In this document: piece by piece, positions 6,848 to 12,151 of the stretch
Layout: each line of letters starts with the position of its first letter
Numbering within the stretch: the first letter of the stretch is position 1
Source: Salinirussus salinus
Lineage (GTDB): Archaea > Halobacteriota > Halobacteria > Halobacteriales > Haloarculaceae
Assembly (NCBI RefSeq): GCF_009831455.1
Contig: NZ_WOWO01000002.1
Coordinates: 992,001 to 1,056,000, forward strand
DNA: 64,000 bases
Direction of reading: 5' to 3'
Position numbers and translations under genes: made by a program
The notes under the pieces: model-generated
Databases searched by the model: none
Seen by the model: only the letters and a program-made list of their open reading frames with translations
What the model was told of the DNA's origin: nothing

Positions 6848-7306
6848 TCAGAGGTCCCGGACCATCGCGACCCCATCCCCCGACTCGAAGAAGTCGGGGA
6901 GGCGCTCGAGGACGTCGAAGCCCCGTGACTCGTAGAACCGTCTCGCGCGGCTGTCGCCGGCGCGTGCCGTCACGCGCAGTCGGTCGGGGCCGCCCTCGCG
7001 CCCGCGCAGGTCCGCGACGACCGCGTCGAGCAGGGCCGTGCCGACGCCCTCGCCCTGGCGGGCGGGCGCGACCGCGAGTTCGGGGAGGTAGGCGACTGCG
7101 CCGGCGACGAGGACCGCGTAGCCGACAGGCTCGCCGTCGTCGGCGACGAACAGCGCGGGCGGGCCCTCCGCGGTCGCGGCGCGGAGCAGGTCCGGCGCCG
7201 GCTCGGCGAGTGCAGCGGCCTGTATCCGGCGGAGGTGGGGCAGGTCGCCGGGCTCGCCGCGGCGGACGCCGGGCGTGGGACCGGCGTCGGGCCCGGAGTC
7301 GGTCAT
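6848..7306 (-). CDS. GNAT family N-acetyltransferase
   Basis: A 152-residue acetyltransferase with the acetyl-CoA pyrophosphate loop RQGEGVG in motif A (ELAVAPARQGEGVGTALLDA) and a C-terminal FYESRGFDVLERLP segment typical of GNATs. Its start overlaps the stop of the upstream DUF92 gene by four bases (ATGA), so the two are translationally coupled. The acceptor substrate is unknown; RimI-like protein acetylation is one possibility. Confidence 0.88.
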   Translation of the reverse strand: MTDSGPDAGPTPGVRRGEPGDLPHLRRIQAAALAEPAPDLLRAATAEGPPALFVADDGEPVGYAVLVAGAVAYLPELAVAPARQGEGVGTALLDAVVADLRGREGGPDRLRVTARAGDSRARRFYESRGFDVLERLPDFFESGDGVAMVRDL

Positions 7307-8646
7307 AAGGCGGTCAGCCCGACGGCGACGGCCAGCCCGGCGCCGACCACGGCGGCGGCCAGCGTGGCGAGGAGGTTCACGCCCTGGTTGCCCAGCAGCC
7401 ACCCCTCCAGGGTCGCCCCGAGCAGGCTGTCGACGGTCATCCCGGCGACGCCGGCGGCGGCGACGACGGCCGCCCCGGGCACGCCGAGTTCGGCGAACCC
7501 GACGAAGCCGATGGCGGCGATCAGGAGGGCGCCGGCCAGGCCGGCGAGTTCGCCCTGCCAGGTGACCGCGCCGTCGGTGCCGGGCTCGACCACTTCGAAG
7601 GAGGTGACCAGCCGGGGGTTGTCGTACAGGCCGCCGACCTCGCTGGAGAGGGTATCGGCGAGGGCGGCCGCGAGCGAGCCGGCGAAGGCAAAGAGGAACA
7701 GACGGGGGGAGGTCGACAGCCAGGGGCTGGCGGCCGCGGCGAGCACCGCCACCAGCGCGACCAGCGAGTTCGCGAGGACGTTGCCCGTCCCGCGGGCGCC
7801 CTCGTTCTCCTCGGCGATGCCGCGTTGCTGTTTGACCTCGTAGCCGTACTTCGTCGAGAGGCCGCCGACCCCGAAGAAGGCCACCAGCATGGCGAACCAG
7901 CCGTAGTCCCCGAGCACGATAGTCAGGAGGCTCAGGAGGACGCCGGTGAGCATCCCCGGCAGCGAGGCGGTCTGGAGGGCGTACGAGAGGCCCCCGAGCA
8001 CGGCCGTGACGCCGAGGGCGACGACGATCCGGGTCGGCGTCACCGACAGCGGGAGGGCGGCGAACAGCCACAGCAGCATGGCGACCGAGACCATCACGAG
8101 CGGGTCGTCGCGGCGGAACAGCGCCTCGCGGAGCAGCGCGGCCAGCAGGGCGCCGCTGGCTGCCAGAAAGAGCACCATCGGCCAGGAGGCCGGCAGGTCG
8201 GCCAGCCGGGCGGCGGCGAGCTGGCTGGCGGCGGCGGCGAGAAAGCCGGCGACGACGAAGCCGCTGGTGGTCAGCAGCGCGCCCTGGCGGTACCGGGCGA
8301 CCAGGTGGCCCCCGAAGTTGCCGACTGCGAGCAGGAAGACGGTCCCGACGTAGACCGTGACCGGCATCCCGAATTCGACGGCGAGGATGGCCAGCCCGGC
8401 CGCCGAGAGCGCGAAGCCGGCCAGCCCGTAGAGCTTGCCGTCCTGGCGGTCGCCGGGGCGTGCGAACAGCTCGAACAGCCGTGTTCCGGAGCCGACGGTG
8501 AGCGCGACGGCCGCCACGAGCAGGAAGGGGAGCACGGCAGTGAGGGTGGCGAAGGCGGGCTCCTCGAGCCGTCTGACCCAGGGAACGACCAGCGAGAGCC
8601 CGCCGACCAGCGCGAAGGCGGCTGCACGCCGGACTGTCGATGTCAC
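7303..8646 (-). CDS. DUF92 (TMEM19/VTE6-like) integral membrane protein
   Basis: A 447-residue polytopic protein. The first half is a run of hydrophobic helices. The second half is a DUF92 domain with conserved loops GGLSTKYGYEVKQQRGIAEE, AALADTLSSEVG and PGTDGAVTWQGELAG. DUF92 includes plant VTE6, a CTP-dependent phytyl-phosphate kinase, and is related to dolichol-kinase-like proteins. Here the gene is divergent from a cis-prenyltransferase homologue, which fits a role in polyprenol phosphate metabolism, but that is inference. The GTG at 8646 is preferred because an ATG at 8751 would run through the shared promoter region. Confidence 0.75.
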   Translation of the reverse strand: MTSTVRRAAAFALVGGLSLVVPWVRRLEEPAFATLTAVLPFLLVAAVALTVGSGTRLFELFARPGDRQDGKLYGLAGFALSAAGLAILAVEFGMPVTVYVGTVFLLAVGNFGGHLVARYRQGALLTTSGFVVAGFLAAAASQLAAARLADLPASWPMVLFLAASGALLAALLREALFRRDDPLVMVSVAMLLWLFAALPLSVTPTRIVVALGVTAVLGGLSYALQTASLPGMLTGVLLSLLTIVLGDYGWFAMLVAFFGVGGLSTKYGYEVKQQRGIAEENEGARGTGNVLANSLVALVAVLAAAASPWLSTSPRLFLFAFAGSLAAALADTLSSEVGGLYDNPRLVTSFEVVEPGTDGAVTWQGELAGLAGALLIAAIGFVGFAELGVPGAAVVAAAGVAGMTVDSLLGATLEGWLLGNQGVNLLATLAAAVVGAGLAVAVGLTAL

Positions 8647-8759
8647 GACCTGCGGTACTGCCGAGTCGCACTTACCCCTTCCGGACCCGTTCCGGGCTCC
8701 TGCCCGACTCGTGGGGCCGCTCCCGGTGGATTTACCCCACGGCCGGGCCAAGCGCGGCC

Positions 8760-9365
8760 GTGGGTATCTACGACGCCTACCTCGCCGCCCGCATCCGGCA
8801 CAGCGACGCCGCCCTCCCCGAGACAGTCGCCGTGGTCCTCACGGAGCGGGACCTGCTCGACGGCGGGTACGCGACCCTGGAGGAGCTGCTGGGCTGGGCC
8901 GTCGAGTTCGGCGCCGACCGCGTGGTCGTCTACGTCAGTGTCCTCGACGAAGAAGCCGTCCCGCGGCTCCGGGAGGGGCTCGAGCGGGTCGAGGCGCCGC
9001 GACGGATGGCCGTCCGGAGTCCCGACGACGACGAGCGCGCCGACGCCCCCATCCAGGTGAGCATCGGGCTGGGCGGCAAACACGAGTTCACGACCGCCGT
9101 CCGGCAGCTGGCCGAGGCCGTCGACGCCGGCGAGCTCGACCCCGGGGAGATCGAGGAGGCGGACGTCGAGGAACGCCTCGTCTTCCCGGTCGCCCCCGAC
9201 CTGGTGGTCAAGACCGGCGCCGAGCGGCTCTCGGATTTCATGATCTGGCAGTCGGTCTACTCCGAACTCTACTTCACCGACGTGAACTGGCAGAACGTCC
9301 GCCGCCGGGACTACCTGCGCGCGCTGCGGGACTACCAGGACCGCCAGCGGCGATTCGGCCGATAG
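8760..9365 (+). CDS. Cis-prenyltransferase homologue lacking the catalytic motif (NgBR/Nus1-like accessory subunit candidate)
   Basis: A 201-residue protein of the undecaprenyl diphosphate synthase family. The C-terminal half matches catalytic enzymes well: PDLVVKTGAERLSDFMIWQS, then YSELYFTDVNW, and a terminal RFG (R198-F199-G200), the RXG motif that reaches into the partner active site. The N-terminal catalytic D-G-N-(R/G)-R motif and diphosphate-binding loop are gone: the strand VAVVL is followed by TERDLLDGGYAT. This is the pattern of the non-catalytic subunit of two-subunit cis-prenyltransferases. A GTG start at 8760 gives a family-like N-terminus (VGIYDAYLAARI). The intact paralogue lies at 11216-12151. 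Confidence 0.8.
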   Translation: MGIYDAYLAARIRHSDAALPETVAVVLTERDLLDGGYATLEELLGWAVEFGADRVVVYVSVLDEEAVPRLREGLERVEAPRRMAVRSPDDDERADAPIQVSIGLGGKHEFTTAVRQLAEAVDAGELDPGEIEEADVEERLVFPVAPDLVVKTGAERLSDFMIWQSVYSELYFTDVNWQNVRRRDYLRALRDYQDRQRRFGR

Positions 9366-9481
9366 GCCGGATCACGTGCGAGCAGTGCGAAGCGACGCGC
9401 CCTCCGCAGCTCCGGTCGAACGCCGGACGCGGCCGGGCGTTCGCCGGAAGCGTTATTTCGGTTGATGTGACACGTTACCAT

Positions 9482-9883
9482 ATGTATCGCGTGTTGATGC
9501 CGATCGACAGCAGCGAATCCCGGGGAGCCGCGCAGGCGGAGGCCGTCGCGGCGCTGCCGAACGCCGGCGAGGAGGTGACGGTGACGCTGCTGTACGCGTT
9601 CGACGACGGTGACAGAGGCGAGGAGACCGCACCCCGCCAGATCCCGGGCGGGAGCGTCGCCTACGACCGGCTGCAGGAGGCAGGCATCGCCGTCGAGCAG
9701 GTCTCGCGGGTCGGCGACCCGGCCGCGGAGATCCTCGCGGTGGCCGAGGAGGTCGACGCCGACCACATCGTGCTGGGCGGGCGCAAGCGCTCGCCGGCGC
9801 GGTCGCTGCTCTTTGGCAGCGTCACGCAGGCGGTGTTGCTCGACGCCGACCGCCCGGTGTCGGTCACCGGCGGCGAGAAGTAA
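9482..9883 (+). CDS. Universal stress protein UspA family
   Basis: A 133-residue single-domain Usp. It starts MYRVLMPIDSSESRG and has the ATP-binding-type loop LGGRKRSPARSLLFGSVT (G-x2-x-x9-G-S/T form) near residue 100, ending with the usual PVSVTGG. Proteins of this kind bind nucleotides and help cells survive stress. The ATG at 9482 lies 3' of an AT-rich GTTATTTCGG element that can serve as TATA box. It stands alone in its transcription unit. Confidence 0.9.
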   Translation: MYRVLMPIDSSESRGAAQAEAVAALPNAGEEVTVTLLYAFDDGDRGEETAPRQIPGGSVAYDRLQEAGIAVEQVSRVGDPAAEILAVAEEVDADHIVLGGRKRSPARSLLFGSVTQAVLLDADRPVSVTGGEK

Positions 9884-9932
9884 GGGGCGGTCCGACACAA
9901 GCGGTAAGCCCGGTGACGCCCACGTGCCGACG

Positions 9933-10430
9933 ATGACCGAACCCACGGGCGCCTGGTCGCGAGCGGAACTCGACGCGTTTCTGGACAGCGCGGTGGTCCC
10001 GGTCCGGCTGGGCTGTCGCCGGCCCGACGGCGGGCTATGGATGCTGTCGCTGTGGTACCGCCGCGAGGGCGAGCGCCTGCAGTGTGCGACCGGCGCCGGC
10101 GCGAACGTGGTCGAGTACCTGCGAGCGGACGGCTCGGTCGCCTTCGAGGTGTCGACCAACACGCCGCCCTACATGGGTGTCCGGGGCAACGGAACCGCGA
10201 CCGTCGAGCCCGACGCGGACAAGACCGTCATCCGGGCGCTCGTCGAGCGGTATCTCGGCGGGACGGGGTCGGCGATGGCCCGCCGCCTGCTCGCCGAGGA
10301 CCGCGAGGAGGTCCGGATCACCGTCGAGCCCGACCGGCTGTACACGTGGGACTTCACCGAGCGGATGCGGGAAGTCAGCGCCGGGGCGCCCGCGGCGGCC
10401 GGCGACCCCGCCTCGCCCCGACGGGAGTGA
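9933..10430 (+). CDS. Pyridoxamine 5'-phosphate oxidase-like (split barrel) protein
   Basis: A 165-residue protein with a split-barrel pattern: LDSAVVPVRLGCRRPDGGLW, then LSLWYRREGERLQCATG, then FEVSTNTPPYMGVRGNGTAT, then a C-terminal VRITVEPDRLYTWDF. This order is typical of haloarchaeal flavin- or F420-binding PPOX-like proteins. It starts 49 bases after uspA on the same strand and ends immediately before the stop codon of the converging DUF7344 gene, with no spacer. Substrate unknown. Confidence 0.72.
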   Translation: MTEPTGAWSRAELDAFLDSAVVPVRLGCRRPDGGLWMLSLWYRREGERLQCATGAGANVVEYLRADGSVAFEVSTNTPPYMGVRGNGTATVEPDADKTVIRALVERYLGGTGSAMARRLLAEDREEVRITVEPDRLYTWDFTERMREVSAGAPAAAGDPASPRRE

Positions 10431-10829
10431 TCAGTACAGGTCTCCGGGGAAGGCGTCGGCGTTCTCGGCGAGCGTGCGAAGCGCCGGCTCGGCCTCCTCG
10501 AAGCCGGGACCCCGGGAGACGGACCTCTCGTCGGGGTCCCACTCGACCAGCCCCCGGTTTTCGAGTTTCGGCAGGTGCTTGTGGACGAGCGCGAGTTCGA
10601 GGTCCTCCTCCCGCGCCGTGGCACTCGAAGGTGAGCCGTCCCCCGGCCGTGTCTCCCCTCCGGACGCCGACACTGACCGTCGCCCCCCGGCGTTTCCGTC
10701 GTCGGCAGACGCCCCCCGCGTGAGCAGCCCCTCCGGCAGATTGACCGCCTCGCGCTCACAGAGCAAAAAGAGGATGCGCCGGCGGTGGGCCGCCGCCAGG
10801 ATCCCGAACAGCTCGGAAGCGTCTGACAT
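10431..10829 (-). CDS. DUF7344 winged-helix regulator
   Basis: A 132-residue haloarchaeal winged-helix protein. The N-terminal helix pair is LFGILAAAHRRRILFLLCER and the recognition/wing part is HLPKLENRGLVEWDPDER. Between them is a roughly 40-residue Gly/Ser-rich insertion. Proteins of this kind are small DNA-binding regulators; many lie next to HalOD1 genes, as here (10963). The start at 10829 lies 24 bases from a TATA box on the same strand, so the mRNA is probably leaderless. Confidence 0.75.
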   Translation of the reverse strand: MSDASELFGILAAAHRRRILFLLCEREAVNLPEGLLTRGASADDGNAGGRRSVSASGGETRPGDGSPSSATAREEDLELALVHKHLPKLENRGLVEWDPDERSVSRGPGFEEAEPALRTLAENADAFPGDLY

Positions 10830-10830
10830 A

Positions 10831-10860
10831 CCGATCGATCGGCACGACAGCAGTATAAAT
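10831..10860 (-). promoter_or_regulatory. TATA box and 12-bp palindrome before the DUF7344 gene
   Basis: A perfect palindrome CCGATCGATCGG occupies 10831-10842, directly between the start codon at 10829 and the TATA-like ATTTATACT (minus strand) at 10853-10860. A repressor bound here would block transcription initiation, so autoregulation by the DUF7344 protein is plausible but unproven. Confidence 0.45.
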
Positions 10861-10962
10861 GTTAGTCAGACAAGACGTATGACGGGCAGTGTGACAGCCG
10901 GCGGGAGACGGAGTCCCGCGAACGGCCACGAGGCTTTTCACGGTGTCGGGCCCGCACCCGGT

Positions 10963-11205
10963 ATGGACCGCTCACCGCTCGTGTCGAAGGTCGTCGGCGC
11001 GCTCGCCGACGCAGAGGGCGTCGACCCGGCGGAGCTCGACTTCGTCCTCCAGAACCACGTCGACGCCGACGCGGTGGGGGCGATCGCGCGATACTCGGAC
11101 ACCACGTGGACGCTCTCTTTCGAGGTCCCGGGGCACACGGTCACGGTGACCGACGAGCGAGTGGTGCTCGTCGACGGCGCGCGGGCGGAGCCGGCGTGGC
11201 CCTGA
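10963..11205 (+). CDS. HalOD1 output-domain protein
   Basis: An 80-residue single-domain HalOD1 protein. The family pattern is SKVVGALADAEGVDPAELDF at the N-terminus and a C-terminal beta hairpin (TVTVTDERVVLVDG). HalOD1 is a haloarchaeal output domain of signalling proteins whose molecular role is unknown. It is divergent from the DUF7344 regulator at 10431, a pairing that recurs at 54085-54755 in this window. Confidence 0.7.
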   Translation: MDRSPLVSKVVGALADAEGVDPAELDFVLQNHVDADAVGAIARYSDTTWTLSFEVPGHTVTVTDERVVLVDGARAEPAWP

Positions 11206-11215
11206 GGCAATGTCG

Positions 11216-12151
11216 TCAGTCGGCCGGCTGTTCGACTTCCTCTTCGACGGCCTCGCGCTCGCCGCTGGGGAGCGCATCCCGGAACCGCCGGAGCACCCGC
11301 CGGGCACGCGGGGTCTCGGCGTCGCCGCCGAGCGCGCGCACCAGCGCCAGCGCGCGGCGGGCCCGGGTGCGGCGCCAGGACTGTTCGCGGTGCTGGTAGG
11401 TCCGGATCCCCCGCAGGAAGTCGATCTTCCGGAACTCCGGCCAGTAGGGCGTACAGAAGTAGACGGCGGCCTCGTTGCCGTTGGCCTGCCAGGGCAGGAA
11501 GTTCGAGGTGCGCTCGTCGCCGCCGGTGCGGACGATGAGGTCGACGTCGCGGGTCGGCCCTTCCGGCAGTGCCGCCTCGACGGCCCCGGTGTCGACCTCG
11601 CCGGGGTCGCGCTCGCCGGCGGCCACCTCGCGGGCGATGTCGCGGGCGGCCCCCAGAAGCTCCGCCCGGCCGCCGTAGGCCAGCGCGACGTTGAGGTGCA
11701 GCCGGTCGTACTCGCGGGTTCGGGCCTCGGCGTAGTCGACGGCCTCCCGGACCCGCTCGGGGAGGCGGTCGCGGTCGCCGATGGCGCGGATCCGGACCTC
11801 GGCGTCGTGGACCCGGTCGGCGTCGGCGAACTCCCGGAGTTTCTCCGTGATCAGGTCGAAGAGGTGTTCGCGCTCCTCGGGGGGGCGCTCGAAGTTCTCC
11901 GTCGAGAATGCGTAGAGGGTGACCTCCCGGACGCCGAGTTCGTCACACCAGTCGAGCAGCTGTTCGGTGGTCTGGGCACCCGCGCGGTGGCCGTCGGCGG
12001 CGTCCCCGCCCTGCCTGTCGGCGTACCGACGGTTGCCGTCCTGGATGACCGCCACGTGCGACGGGGTCTCGGAGAGTTCGGCCCGGAGCAGCCGCTCGTA
12101 GGCCGCGTCGGCGAGCCGTCGCAGGTACGTTCGCATCTGTCGGATACCCAT
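11216..12151 (-). CDS. uppS: Tritrans,polycis-undecaprenyl diphosphate synthase (catalytic cis-prenyltransferase)
   Basis: A 311-residue enzyme that chain-elongates allylic diphosphates with isopentenyl diphosphate to make the polyprenyl carrier for glycosylation. It retains HVAVIQDGNRRYAD with the catalytic Asp, LYAFSTENFERP, and DLIVRTGGDERTSNFLPWQ. The usual C-terminal R-X-G after the YQ-RE helix is absent: the chain continues REQSWRRTRARR into a basic/acidic extension of about 55 residues. Eukaryotic catalytic subunits that need an NgBR/Nus1 partner lack the same motif. The likely partner is the truncated paralogue at 8760-9365. Confidence 0.92.
   Translation of the reverse strand: MGIRQMRTYLRRLADAAYERLLRAELSETPSHVAVIQDGNRRYADRQGGDAADGHRAGAQTTEQLLDWCDELGVREVTLYAFSTENFERPPEEREHLFDLITEKLREFADADRVHDAEVRIRAIGDRDRLPERVREAVDYAEARTREYDRLHLNVALAYGGRAELLGAARDIAREVAAGERDPGEVDTGAVEAALPEGPTRDVDLIVRTGGDERTSNFLPWQANGNEAAVYFCTPYWPEFRKIDFLRGIRTYQHREQSWRRTRARRALALVRALGGDAETPRARRVLRRFRDALPSGEREAVEEEVEQPAD

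What the first reader, a model, noticed from the sequence alone, without database searches (positions are those of the whole stretch)
8760..12151. Complementary motif loss suggests a two-subunit cis-prenyltransferase in a haloarchaeon
Two homologues lie 1.85 kb apart. The one at 11216-12151 keeps the catalytic DGNRR and FSTENF motifs but lacks the C-terminal R-X-G. The one at 8760-9365 has lost the catalytic Asp and the diphosphate loop but ends in RFG. That reciprocal pattern is the hallmark of heteromeric enzymes (NgBR/Nus1 with DHDDS/Rer2 in eukaryotes, and reported in some archaea). Here the accessory subunit would be required for making the polyprenyl carrier used in surface-protein glycosylation.
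Basis: partly seen in the sequence, partly recalled or inferred. Interest (0 to 1): 0.75.

Follow-up and report, generated by a model that had tools for sequence, protein, structure and literature searches.

The report
Haloarchaeal two-part lipid-carrier enzyme
In this salt-loving archaeon the enzyme that builds the lipid carrier for surface sugars appears to be split into a working half and a helper half, the same arrangement humans and yeast use; it is a new, very widespread case of a known kind, not a new kind of system.

Summary
Observation confirmed. Window 11216-12151(-) encodes a full cis-prenyltransferase with DGNRR and FSTENF but no C-terminal RXG. Window 8760-9365(+) encodes a shortened homologue with no catalytic Asp that ends R-F-G-R. 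They are the only two PF01255 proteins in the genome.

The pattern is fixed, not chance. Of 292 haloarchaeal genomes, 281 have exactly two PF01255 matches, and 116 of 116 encode the small protein. Across the phylum, 85 of 87 small proteins examined carry RxG (2 KxG), always one residue from the end. None of 84 catalytic partners has it at the aligned position. The two form separate branches of one tree. Where linked in haloarchaea they lie tail-to-tail (40 of 40).

Best reading: a two-subunit cis-prenyltransferase in which the small subunit lends its C-terminus to the partner's active site, as NgBR does for DHDDS. This is inferred; no complex was modelled or assayed.

It is not a new kind: a heteromeric enzyme is published for Methanosarcina mazei. 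What is added is distribution, exact C-terminus length, and a conserved neighbour: a DUF92 membrane protein head-to-head with the small, not the catalytic, subunit (46 of 51 loci).

The parts
8760..9365 (+). Small, noncatalytic cis-prenyltransferase subunit (NgBR/Nus1-like), 201 aa, GTG start, ends R-F-G-R
   Evidence: PF01255 C-terminal half only; TERDL instead of DGNRR; RFG one residue from the end; 116 of 116 haloarchaeal genomes have it
11216..12151 (-). Catalytic cis-prenyltransferase subunit (DHDDS/Rer2-like), 311 aa, with a C-terminal extension of about 50 aa and no RXG
   Evidence: PF01255 full length; DGNRR, FSTENF, R208/R214/S216 invariant in 39 relatives; no RXG at the aligned place
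7303..8646 (-). DUF92 integral membrane protein (start at 8646 inferred), head-to-head with the small subunit; predicted relative of CTP-dependent dolichol/isoprenoid kinases; associated gene, not shown to be a subunit
   Evidence: PF01940 4.7e-56; only PF01940 match in the genome; head-to-head with the small gene in 46 of 51 haloarchaeal loci
8647..8759 (.). 113-bp divergent intergenic region between DUF92 and the small subunit; presumed shared promoter region
   Evidence: read directly from the sequence; promoter role is inference
9366..11215 (.). Spacer between the two convergent subunit genes; holds a Usp protein, a PNPOx-like protein, a DUF7344 protein and a short ORF that are not part of the system
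   Evidence: in relatives the gap is 7-2577 bp

Best explanation
The two genes encode the two subunits of one heteromeric cis-prenyltransferase. The catalytic subunit binds the allylic and isopentenyl diphosphates and carries the catalytic Asp and tunnel, but cannot complete a site by itself because its C-terminus runs on as a helical extension instead of ending in RXG. The small subunit has lost the diphosphate loop and catalytic Asp. In the dimer its C-terminus (R198-F199-G200-R201) should reach across the interface and close the partner's active site, as NgBR R290-L291-G292-K293 does in human DHDDS. The product would be the polyprenyl diphosphate that becomes dolichyl phosphate for N-glycosylation. 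Shown here: homology, motif pattern, fold of each chain, co-occurrence, linkage, purifying selection, absence of any other PF01255 protein. Inferred: complex formation, the trans active site, dependence of activity on the small subunit, and the product's use.
For: Only two PF01255 proteins in the genome, so no homomeric enzyme is left to do the job. 281 of 292 class genomes have exactly two matches; small subunit in 116 of 116. Motif census: small RxG end 51 of 51, catalytic DGNRR and FSTEN 40 of 40; phylum-wide small 85 RxG + 2 KxG of 87, all with one residue after Gly; catalytic 0 of 84 at the aligned place. Same C-terminal length as human NgBR, whose L291/G292 backbone contacts the phosphate and whose K293 is the last residue (passages of PMC7573591). 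Both fold as cis-prenyltransferases: small model pLDDT 84.7, NgBR 6z1n_B Z 13.1, rmsd 4.1 over 176 residues; catalytic model, DHDDS 7pb1_A Z 23.0, rmsd 3.7 over 251. One small/catalytic split in the tree with similar groupings on each side. dN/dS 0.04-0.13 for small genes. Tail-to-tail linkage 40 of 40 where linked. M. mazei MM_0618/MM_1083 form a heteromeric enzyme (passage of PMC8131916). Own genome has STT3-family matches.
Against: No complex was modelled or measured. The catalytic model is weak at residues 210-238 and the small model at 165-169, both in the IPP-site part of the chain. Fold scores do not separate NgBR from catalytic relatives for the small protein (Z within 1). In 11 of 51 haloarchaeal loci the two genes are not within about 5 kb of each other. 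Three non-haloarchaeal catalytic subunits carry RxG one residue earlier than the aligned position (G312, G356, G449), so loss is not absolute phylum-wide. Seven of 246 phylum genomes show no PF01255 match.
Confidence: 0.88

Rival explanations
1. Two independent homodimers: the long protein is a self-sufficient cis-prenyltransferase and the small one has another role (regulator or lipid-binding protein).
For: The fold permits homodimers; MM_0014, another archaeal cis-prenyltransferase, crystallised as one (PMC8131916 passages); the two genes are on opposite strands and in 11 of 51 haloarchaeal loci not near each other.
Against: The long protein lacks the RXG that the E. coli enzyme carries in the same chain (alignment), and so do all 84 catalytic rows, while the paralogue that co-occurs keeps it at a fixed distance from its end. 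The two are co-inherited throughout the phylum.
Confidence: 0.07
2. The heteromeric enzyme includes or works with the DUF92 membrane protein: a three-gene module in which DUF92 anchors the complex at the membrane or phosphorylates its product. (An extension of the best explanation, not an alternative to it.)
For: DUF92 is head-to-head with the small gene in 46 of 51 haloarchaeal loci and in 38 of 80 named loci, including Methanoperedens and ANME-2; it is the only DUF92 in the genome. A conserved arCOG02245-uppS context was noted by others, who relate the family to cytidylyltransferases and dolichol kinase (PMC5898192 passage). The small subunit starts without room for the transmembrane segment that NgBR has.
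Against: 42 of 80 named loci, Methanosarcina among them, have neither DUF92 nor the catalytic gene in reach of the small gene, so the heteromer does not need the linkage. Gene neighbourhood alone shows no contact.
Confidence: 0.2
3. The small gene is a decaying duplicate without function.
For: It has lost the catalytic residues and part of the domain.
Against: Present in 116 of 116 genomes, dN/dS 0.04-0.13, terminal motif and its distance to the end unchanged across the phylum.
Confidence: 0.01

Closest known systems
Methanosarcina mazei MM_0618/MM_1083 heteromeric cis-prenyltransferase (Emi et al. 2019)
   Same: Archaeal, two-subunit, said to make C45-50 products for the glycosyl carrier lipid (stated in PMC8131916; the 2019 paper itself was not held). 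Methanosarcina small subunits ending in RxG plus one residue are in the set.
   Different: In Methanosarcina loci neither the catalytic gene nor DUF92 lies near the small gene; haloarchaea have a tail-to-tail pair plus DUF92. The two M. mazei sequences were not identified by name here.
Human DHDDS/NgBR and yeast Rer2/Nus1
   Same: Catalytic subunit with a C-terminal helical extension; noncatalytic subunit ending R-x-G plus one residue in human NgBR (PMC7573591 passages)
   Different: NgBR has an N-terminal transmembrane domain; the haloarchaeal small subunit starts directly with the domain and still keeps K151/R156/S158 at the IPP-site positions. Orthology to NgBR was not tested. Nus1 has Asn in place of the Arg.
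Bacterial homodimeric UppS
   Same: Fold and catalytic motifs of the long protein
   Different: E. coli UppS carries RXG in the same chain; the long protein does not
arCOG02245 (DUF92) - uppS context (Makarova et al. 2015, PMC5898192)
   Same: The neighbourhood DUF92 + uppS was reported there (passage)
   Different: Here the neighbour is shown to be the noncatalytic subunit, in head-to-head orientation, with the catalytic one beyond it; the passage I read speaks of one uppS
Archaeoglobus fulgidus heteromeric cis-prenyltransferase
   Same: Recalled from memory as a second archaeal case
   Different: Not confirmed by any search (searches did not show it)

Membership tests
Heteromeric cis-prenyltransferase | Catalytic subunit with complete catalytic motifs | tested here: met
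   DGNRR and FSTEN in 40 of 40 haloarchaeal catalytic proteins; D38, R41, R42, N86, R89, R208, R214, S216 invariant in 39
Heteromeric cis-prenyltransferase | Catalytic subunit lacks the C-terminal RXG | tested here: met
   0 of 84 at the aligned columns; 3 of 84, all outside haloarchaea, have RxG shifted by one residue
Heteromeric cis-prenyltransferase | Noncatalytic subunit homologous in the C-terminal half, catalytic Asp lost | tested here: met
   PF01255 114-219 only; DGN in 0 of 51; Asp at that column in 5 of 87 small rows phylum-wide, none of them with DGN
Heteromeric cis-prenyltransferase | Noncatalytic subunit ends in RXG | tested here: met
   85 of 87 RxG, 2 of 87 KxG, one residue after Gly in 87 of 87
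Heteromeric cis-prenyltransferase | The two subunits form a complex and both are needed for full activity | not testable with these tools
Heteromeric cis-prenyltransferase | Subunits co-occur in genomes | tested here: met
   Two matches in 281 of 292 class genomes; phylum table: 7 of 246 none, 7 one, 18 three or four, rest two, by my reading; the 5 catalytic-only ones are drafts of 79-89% completeness
Homodimeric UppS | RXG in the same chain as the catalytic Asp | tested here: not met
   Window protein reads QSWR at that place
NgBR/Nus1 orthology | Small subunit groups with eukaryotic NgBR rather than arising separately | not tested
   No eukaryotic sequences were in the tree; fold scores are tied

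The most novel reading that the evidence does not exclude
The archaeal enzyme is a three-component machine: the small subunit is tethered to, and co-regulated with, the DUF92 membrane protein, which takes the place of NgBR's transmembrane anchor and acts on the nascent polyprenyl product (for example as a CTP-dependent polyprenol kinase or recycling enzyme), so the module couples chain synthesis to carrier-lipid phosphorylation at the membrane.
Probability: 0.2. Interest if true: 0.65.

Novelty: new member of a known kind. Interest (0 to 1): 0.38.

Why it matters
Haloferax and Halobacterium are the standard models of archaeal N-glycosylation, yet the enzyme making their dolichyl chain is named in the literature I saw as a plain undecaprenyl pyrophosphate synthase. 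If the pair is one enzyme, the split design known from eukaryotes is standard for a whole archaeal phylum and can be tested genetically in tractable species. It also gives hundreds of natural subunit pairs for studying how a pseudo-enzyme subunit completes a partner's active site, and a specific lead for the function of DUF92.

Tried and rejected
NgBR versus catalytic relatives by fold: VIA-align Z values for the small model are tied within 1, so fold does not decide which it resembles more. No yeast Nus1 entry was seen among the rows listed; this says nothing against the resemblance. Other archaeal phyla: not reached; the single genome scan kept the best 80 loci, whose titles name haloarchaea, methanogens, ANME archaea or unclassified archaea. 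Its search pattern included part of the RRF end, so the 80 of 80 RxG ends in that set are partly circular and not used as evidence. Coevolution (DCA) between subunits: not run; too few pairs. The 'decaying duplicate' reading was rejected on conservation. A regex found one RxG downstream of the aligned place in one catalytic protein (RRG in the tail); the aligned count is used instead. The careful tree did not finish; the quick tree is reported. Papers: the 2019 M. mazei paper and PMC5655512 on the RXG motif were not held; literature searches listed no paper that I recognised as describing a haloarchaeal heteromeric cis-prenyltransferase, but subscription journals are mostly missing.
Full report
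What is there. The window holds two homologues of the cis-prenyltransferase family PF01255. The protein at 11216-12151(-) matches the family over its full length (E 3.2e-68), the one at 8760-9365(+) only over its C-terminal half (E 1.7e-24). They are the only two PF01255 matches in the 3.37-Mb genome, which is 99.8% complete by the tool's estimate. The organism is a haloarchaeon: genomes of its class in the search have contigs of the same length as named records, for example G077:C1 and Halopiger goleimassiliensis NZ_HG315690.1, and G004:C1 and Natrinema altunense NZ_JNCS01000001.1.

Motifs. The long protein keeps DGNRR, FSTENF and the IPP-site residues, but where E. coli has RRFG it reads QSWR and continues for about 50 residues (alignment). 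The short protein has TERDL in place of DGNRR and is about 45 residues shorter between that point and its GLGGK segment, so the helices that form the substrate tunnel in active members are reduced; it ends RRFGR, in line with E. coli RRFG. Across one genome per genus plus extras (51 loci), the small protein ends R-[FY]-G plus one residue in 51 of 51 and has no DGN in any; the catalytic protein has DGNRR and FSTEN in 40 of 40 linked loci. Extended to 32 catalytic and 32 small proteins from outside the haloarchaea, 85 of 87 small proteins have RxG (2 have KxG), 87 of 87 have exactly one residue after the Gly, and 0 of 84 catalytic proteins have RxG at the aligned place. Three non-haloarchaeal catalytic proteins (G312, G356, G449) have RxG one residue earlier.

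The fixed distance to the C-terminus matters. In the human complex NgBR ends R290-L291-G292-K293; the backbone of L291 and G292 contacts the phosphate in the S2 site, and the terminal K293 carboxylate contacts DHDDS R37 and R85 (passages of PMC7573591). The archaeal small subunits end at the same place. [quoted passage not shown] the predicted haloarchaeal catalytic subunit has a long helix at 242-274 and two more after it. That the extension plays the same role is inference.

Distribution. 292 of 292 genomes of the class have PF01255 matches; 281 have exactly two, eight have three, two have four and one has one (G072, the small gene only, in a draft of about 120 contigs) (my count from the table). 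A search with the small protein found it in 116 of 116. In the phylum table (246 genomes) I count 7 with none, 7 with one, 18 with three or four and the rest with two. Of the seven with one, five have only the catalytic gene and are drafts of 79-89% completeness; two have only the small gene. Five of the seven with none belong to one family label (f18, 75-91% complete), an exception I cannot explain. Even families in which the small-subunit profile gave only weak matches (G300, G309, G318) proved to have a short, fast-evolving small subunit of about 144-167 aa ending RRFG plus one.

Evolution. In a tree of 101 sequences the small and catalytic proteins are separated by one branch with support 100, and several families (for example G299/G308; G306/G338/G315/G297; G408/G423) group alike on both sides (quick tree, the careful one did not finish). 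This fits one old duplication before the phylum radiated, followed by joint inheritance. Nei-Gojobori dN/dS between close species is 0.04-0.13 for three small pairs and 0.06-0.08 for two catalytic pairs.

Gene order. In 40 of 51 haloarchaeal loci both genes lie within about 5 kb, and in all 40 they are convergent, with gaps of 7 to 2577 bp; the window's gap is at the long end and is filled by a Usp protein, a PNPOx-like protein, a DUF7344 protein and a short ORF. In the other 11 the partner was not found within the fetched stretch; where the class search listed it, it lies elsewhere in the genome. On the other side of the small gene lies a DUF92 membrane protein in head-to-head orientation in 46 of 51 haloarchaeal loci; it is the only DUF92 match in the window's genome. 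Among 80 named loci 38 have DUF92 in reach and all 38 are head-to-head; 27 have the catalytic gene in reach and all 27 are tail-to-tail; 42 (Methanosarcina, Methanophagales and others) have neither in reach. The order DUF92 - small - catalytic occurs in Methanoperedens, Argoarchaeum, Halobacterium salinarum and Natrinema. In the phylum set of 66 loci, 36 hold a small gene; 16 of these have DUF92 (all head-to-head), 15 the catalytic gene, 12 of them tail-to-tail and 3 not (L220, L228, L240). The sets overlap in part. Makarova and colleagues had reported the DUF92-uppS context and suggested a kinase-requiring step of isoprenoid synthesis (passage of PMC5898192); what is added is that the adjacent partner is the noncatalytic subunit.

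Structure. AlphaFold models: small pLDDT 84.7, pTM 0.81; catalytic pLDDT 76.6, pTM 0.68, with the 210-238 stretch below 50. Both match cis-prenyltransferases: small to human NgBR 6z1n_B with Z 13.1, rmsd 4.1, 176 aligned, tied with catalytic relatives at 13.7; catalytic to DHDDS 7pb1_A with Z 23.0, rmsd 3.7, 251 aligned, tied with UppS at 23.5. These confirm the fold of each chain, not the pairing.

What is known. PMC8131916 states that MM_0618 and MM_1083 of M. [quoted passage not shown] I recall a similar report for Archaeoglobus fulgidus but no call confirmed it. HVO_2318 of H. volcanii is named as an undecaprenyl pyrophosphate synthase in two papers (passages), in the second as part of the N-glycosylation pathway. 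No paper that my searches listed describes, as far as I could see from the listings, a haloarchaeal heteromeric enzyme; that is a limited statement, since most subscription journals are not held.

Verdict. The finding is a new and phylum-wide set of members of a known kind. The carrier's use in glycosylation is plausible (the genome has two STT3-family matches) but untested here. The least expected part, and the one worth following, is the DUF92 neighbour of the noncatalytic subunit.

Noticed in passing
window 7303-8646: DUF92 membrane protein head-to-head with the noncatalytic subunit, conserved in 46 of 51 haloarchaeal loci and 38 of 80 named loci
   Followed up: partly
L245:2014-2715: A third, very divergent PF01255 paralogue with DGHRR instead of DGNRR in haloarchaeal genome G002
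   Followed up: no
G298, G307, G316, G325, G332 (family label f18): Five of five genomes of one family in the phylum show no PF01255 match at 75-91% completeness; how they make a carrier lipid is unexplained
   Followed up: no
L231, L233, L234: Reduced small subunits of about 144-167 aa that keep the C-terminal part and the RRFG end
   Followed up: partly
L239-L243: Haloarchaeal genomes G195 and G225 carry extra catalytic copies, one beside a second small subunit in a different orientation
   Followed up: no
L110, L111: Small subunits in genus g17 appear longer or carry an insert and have no catalytic gene within the fetched stretch
   Followed up: no
window 11216-12151, residues 223-233 of the protein: Haloarchaeal catalytic subunits share an ANGNEAA-[VA]-[YF]-F-C segment with two extra residues where UppS has AYAELYFTD
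   Followed up: no
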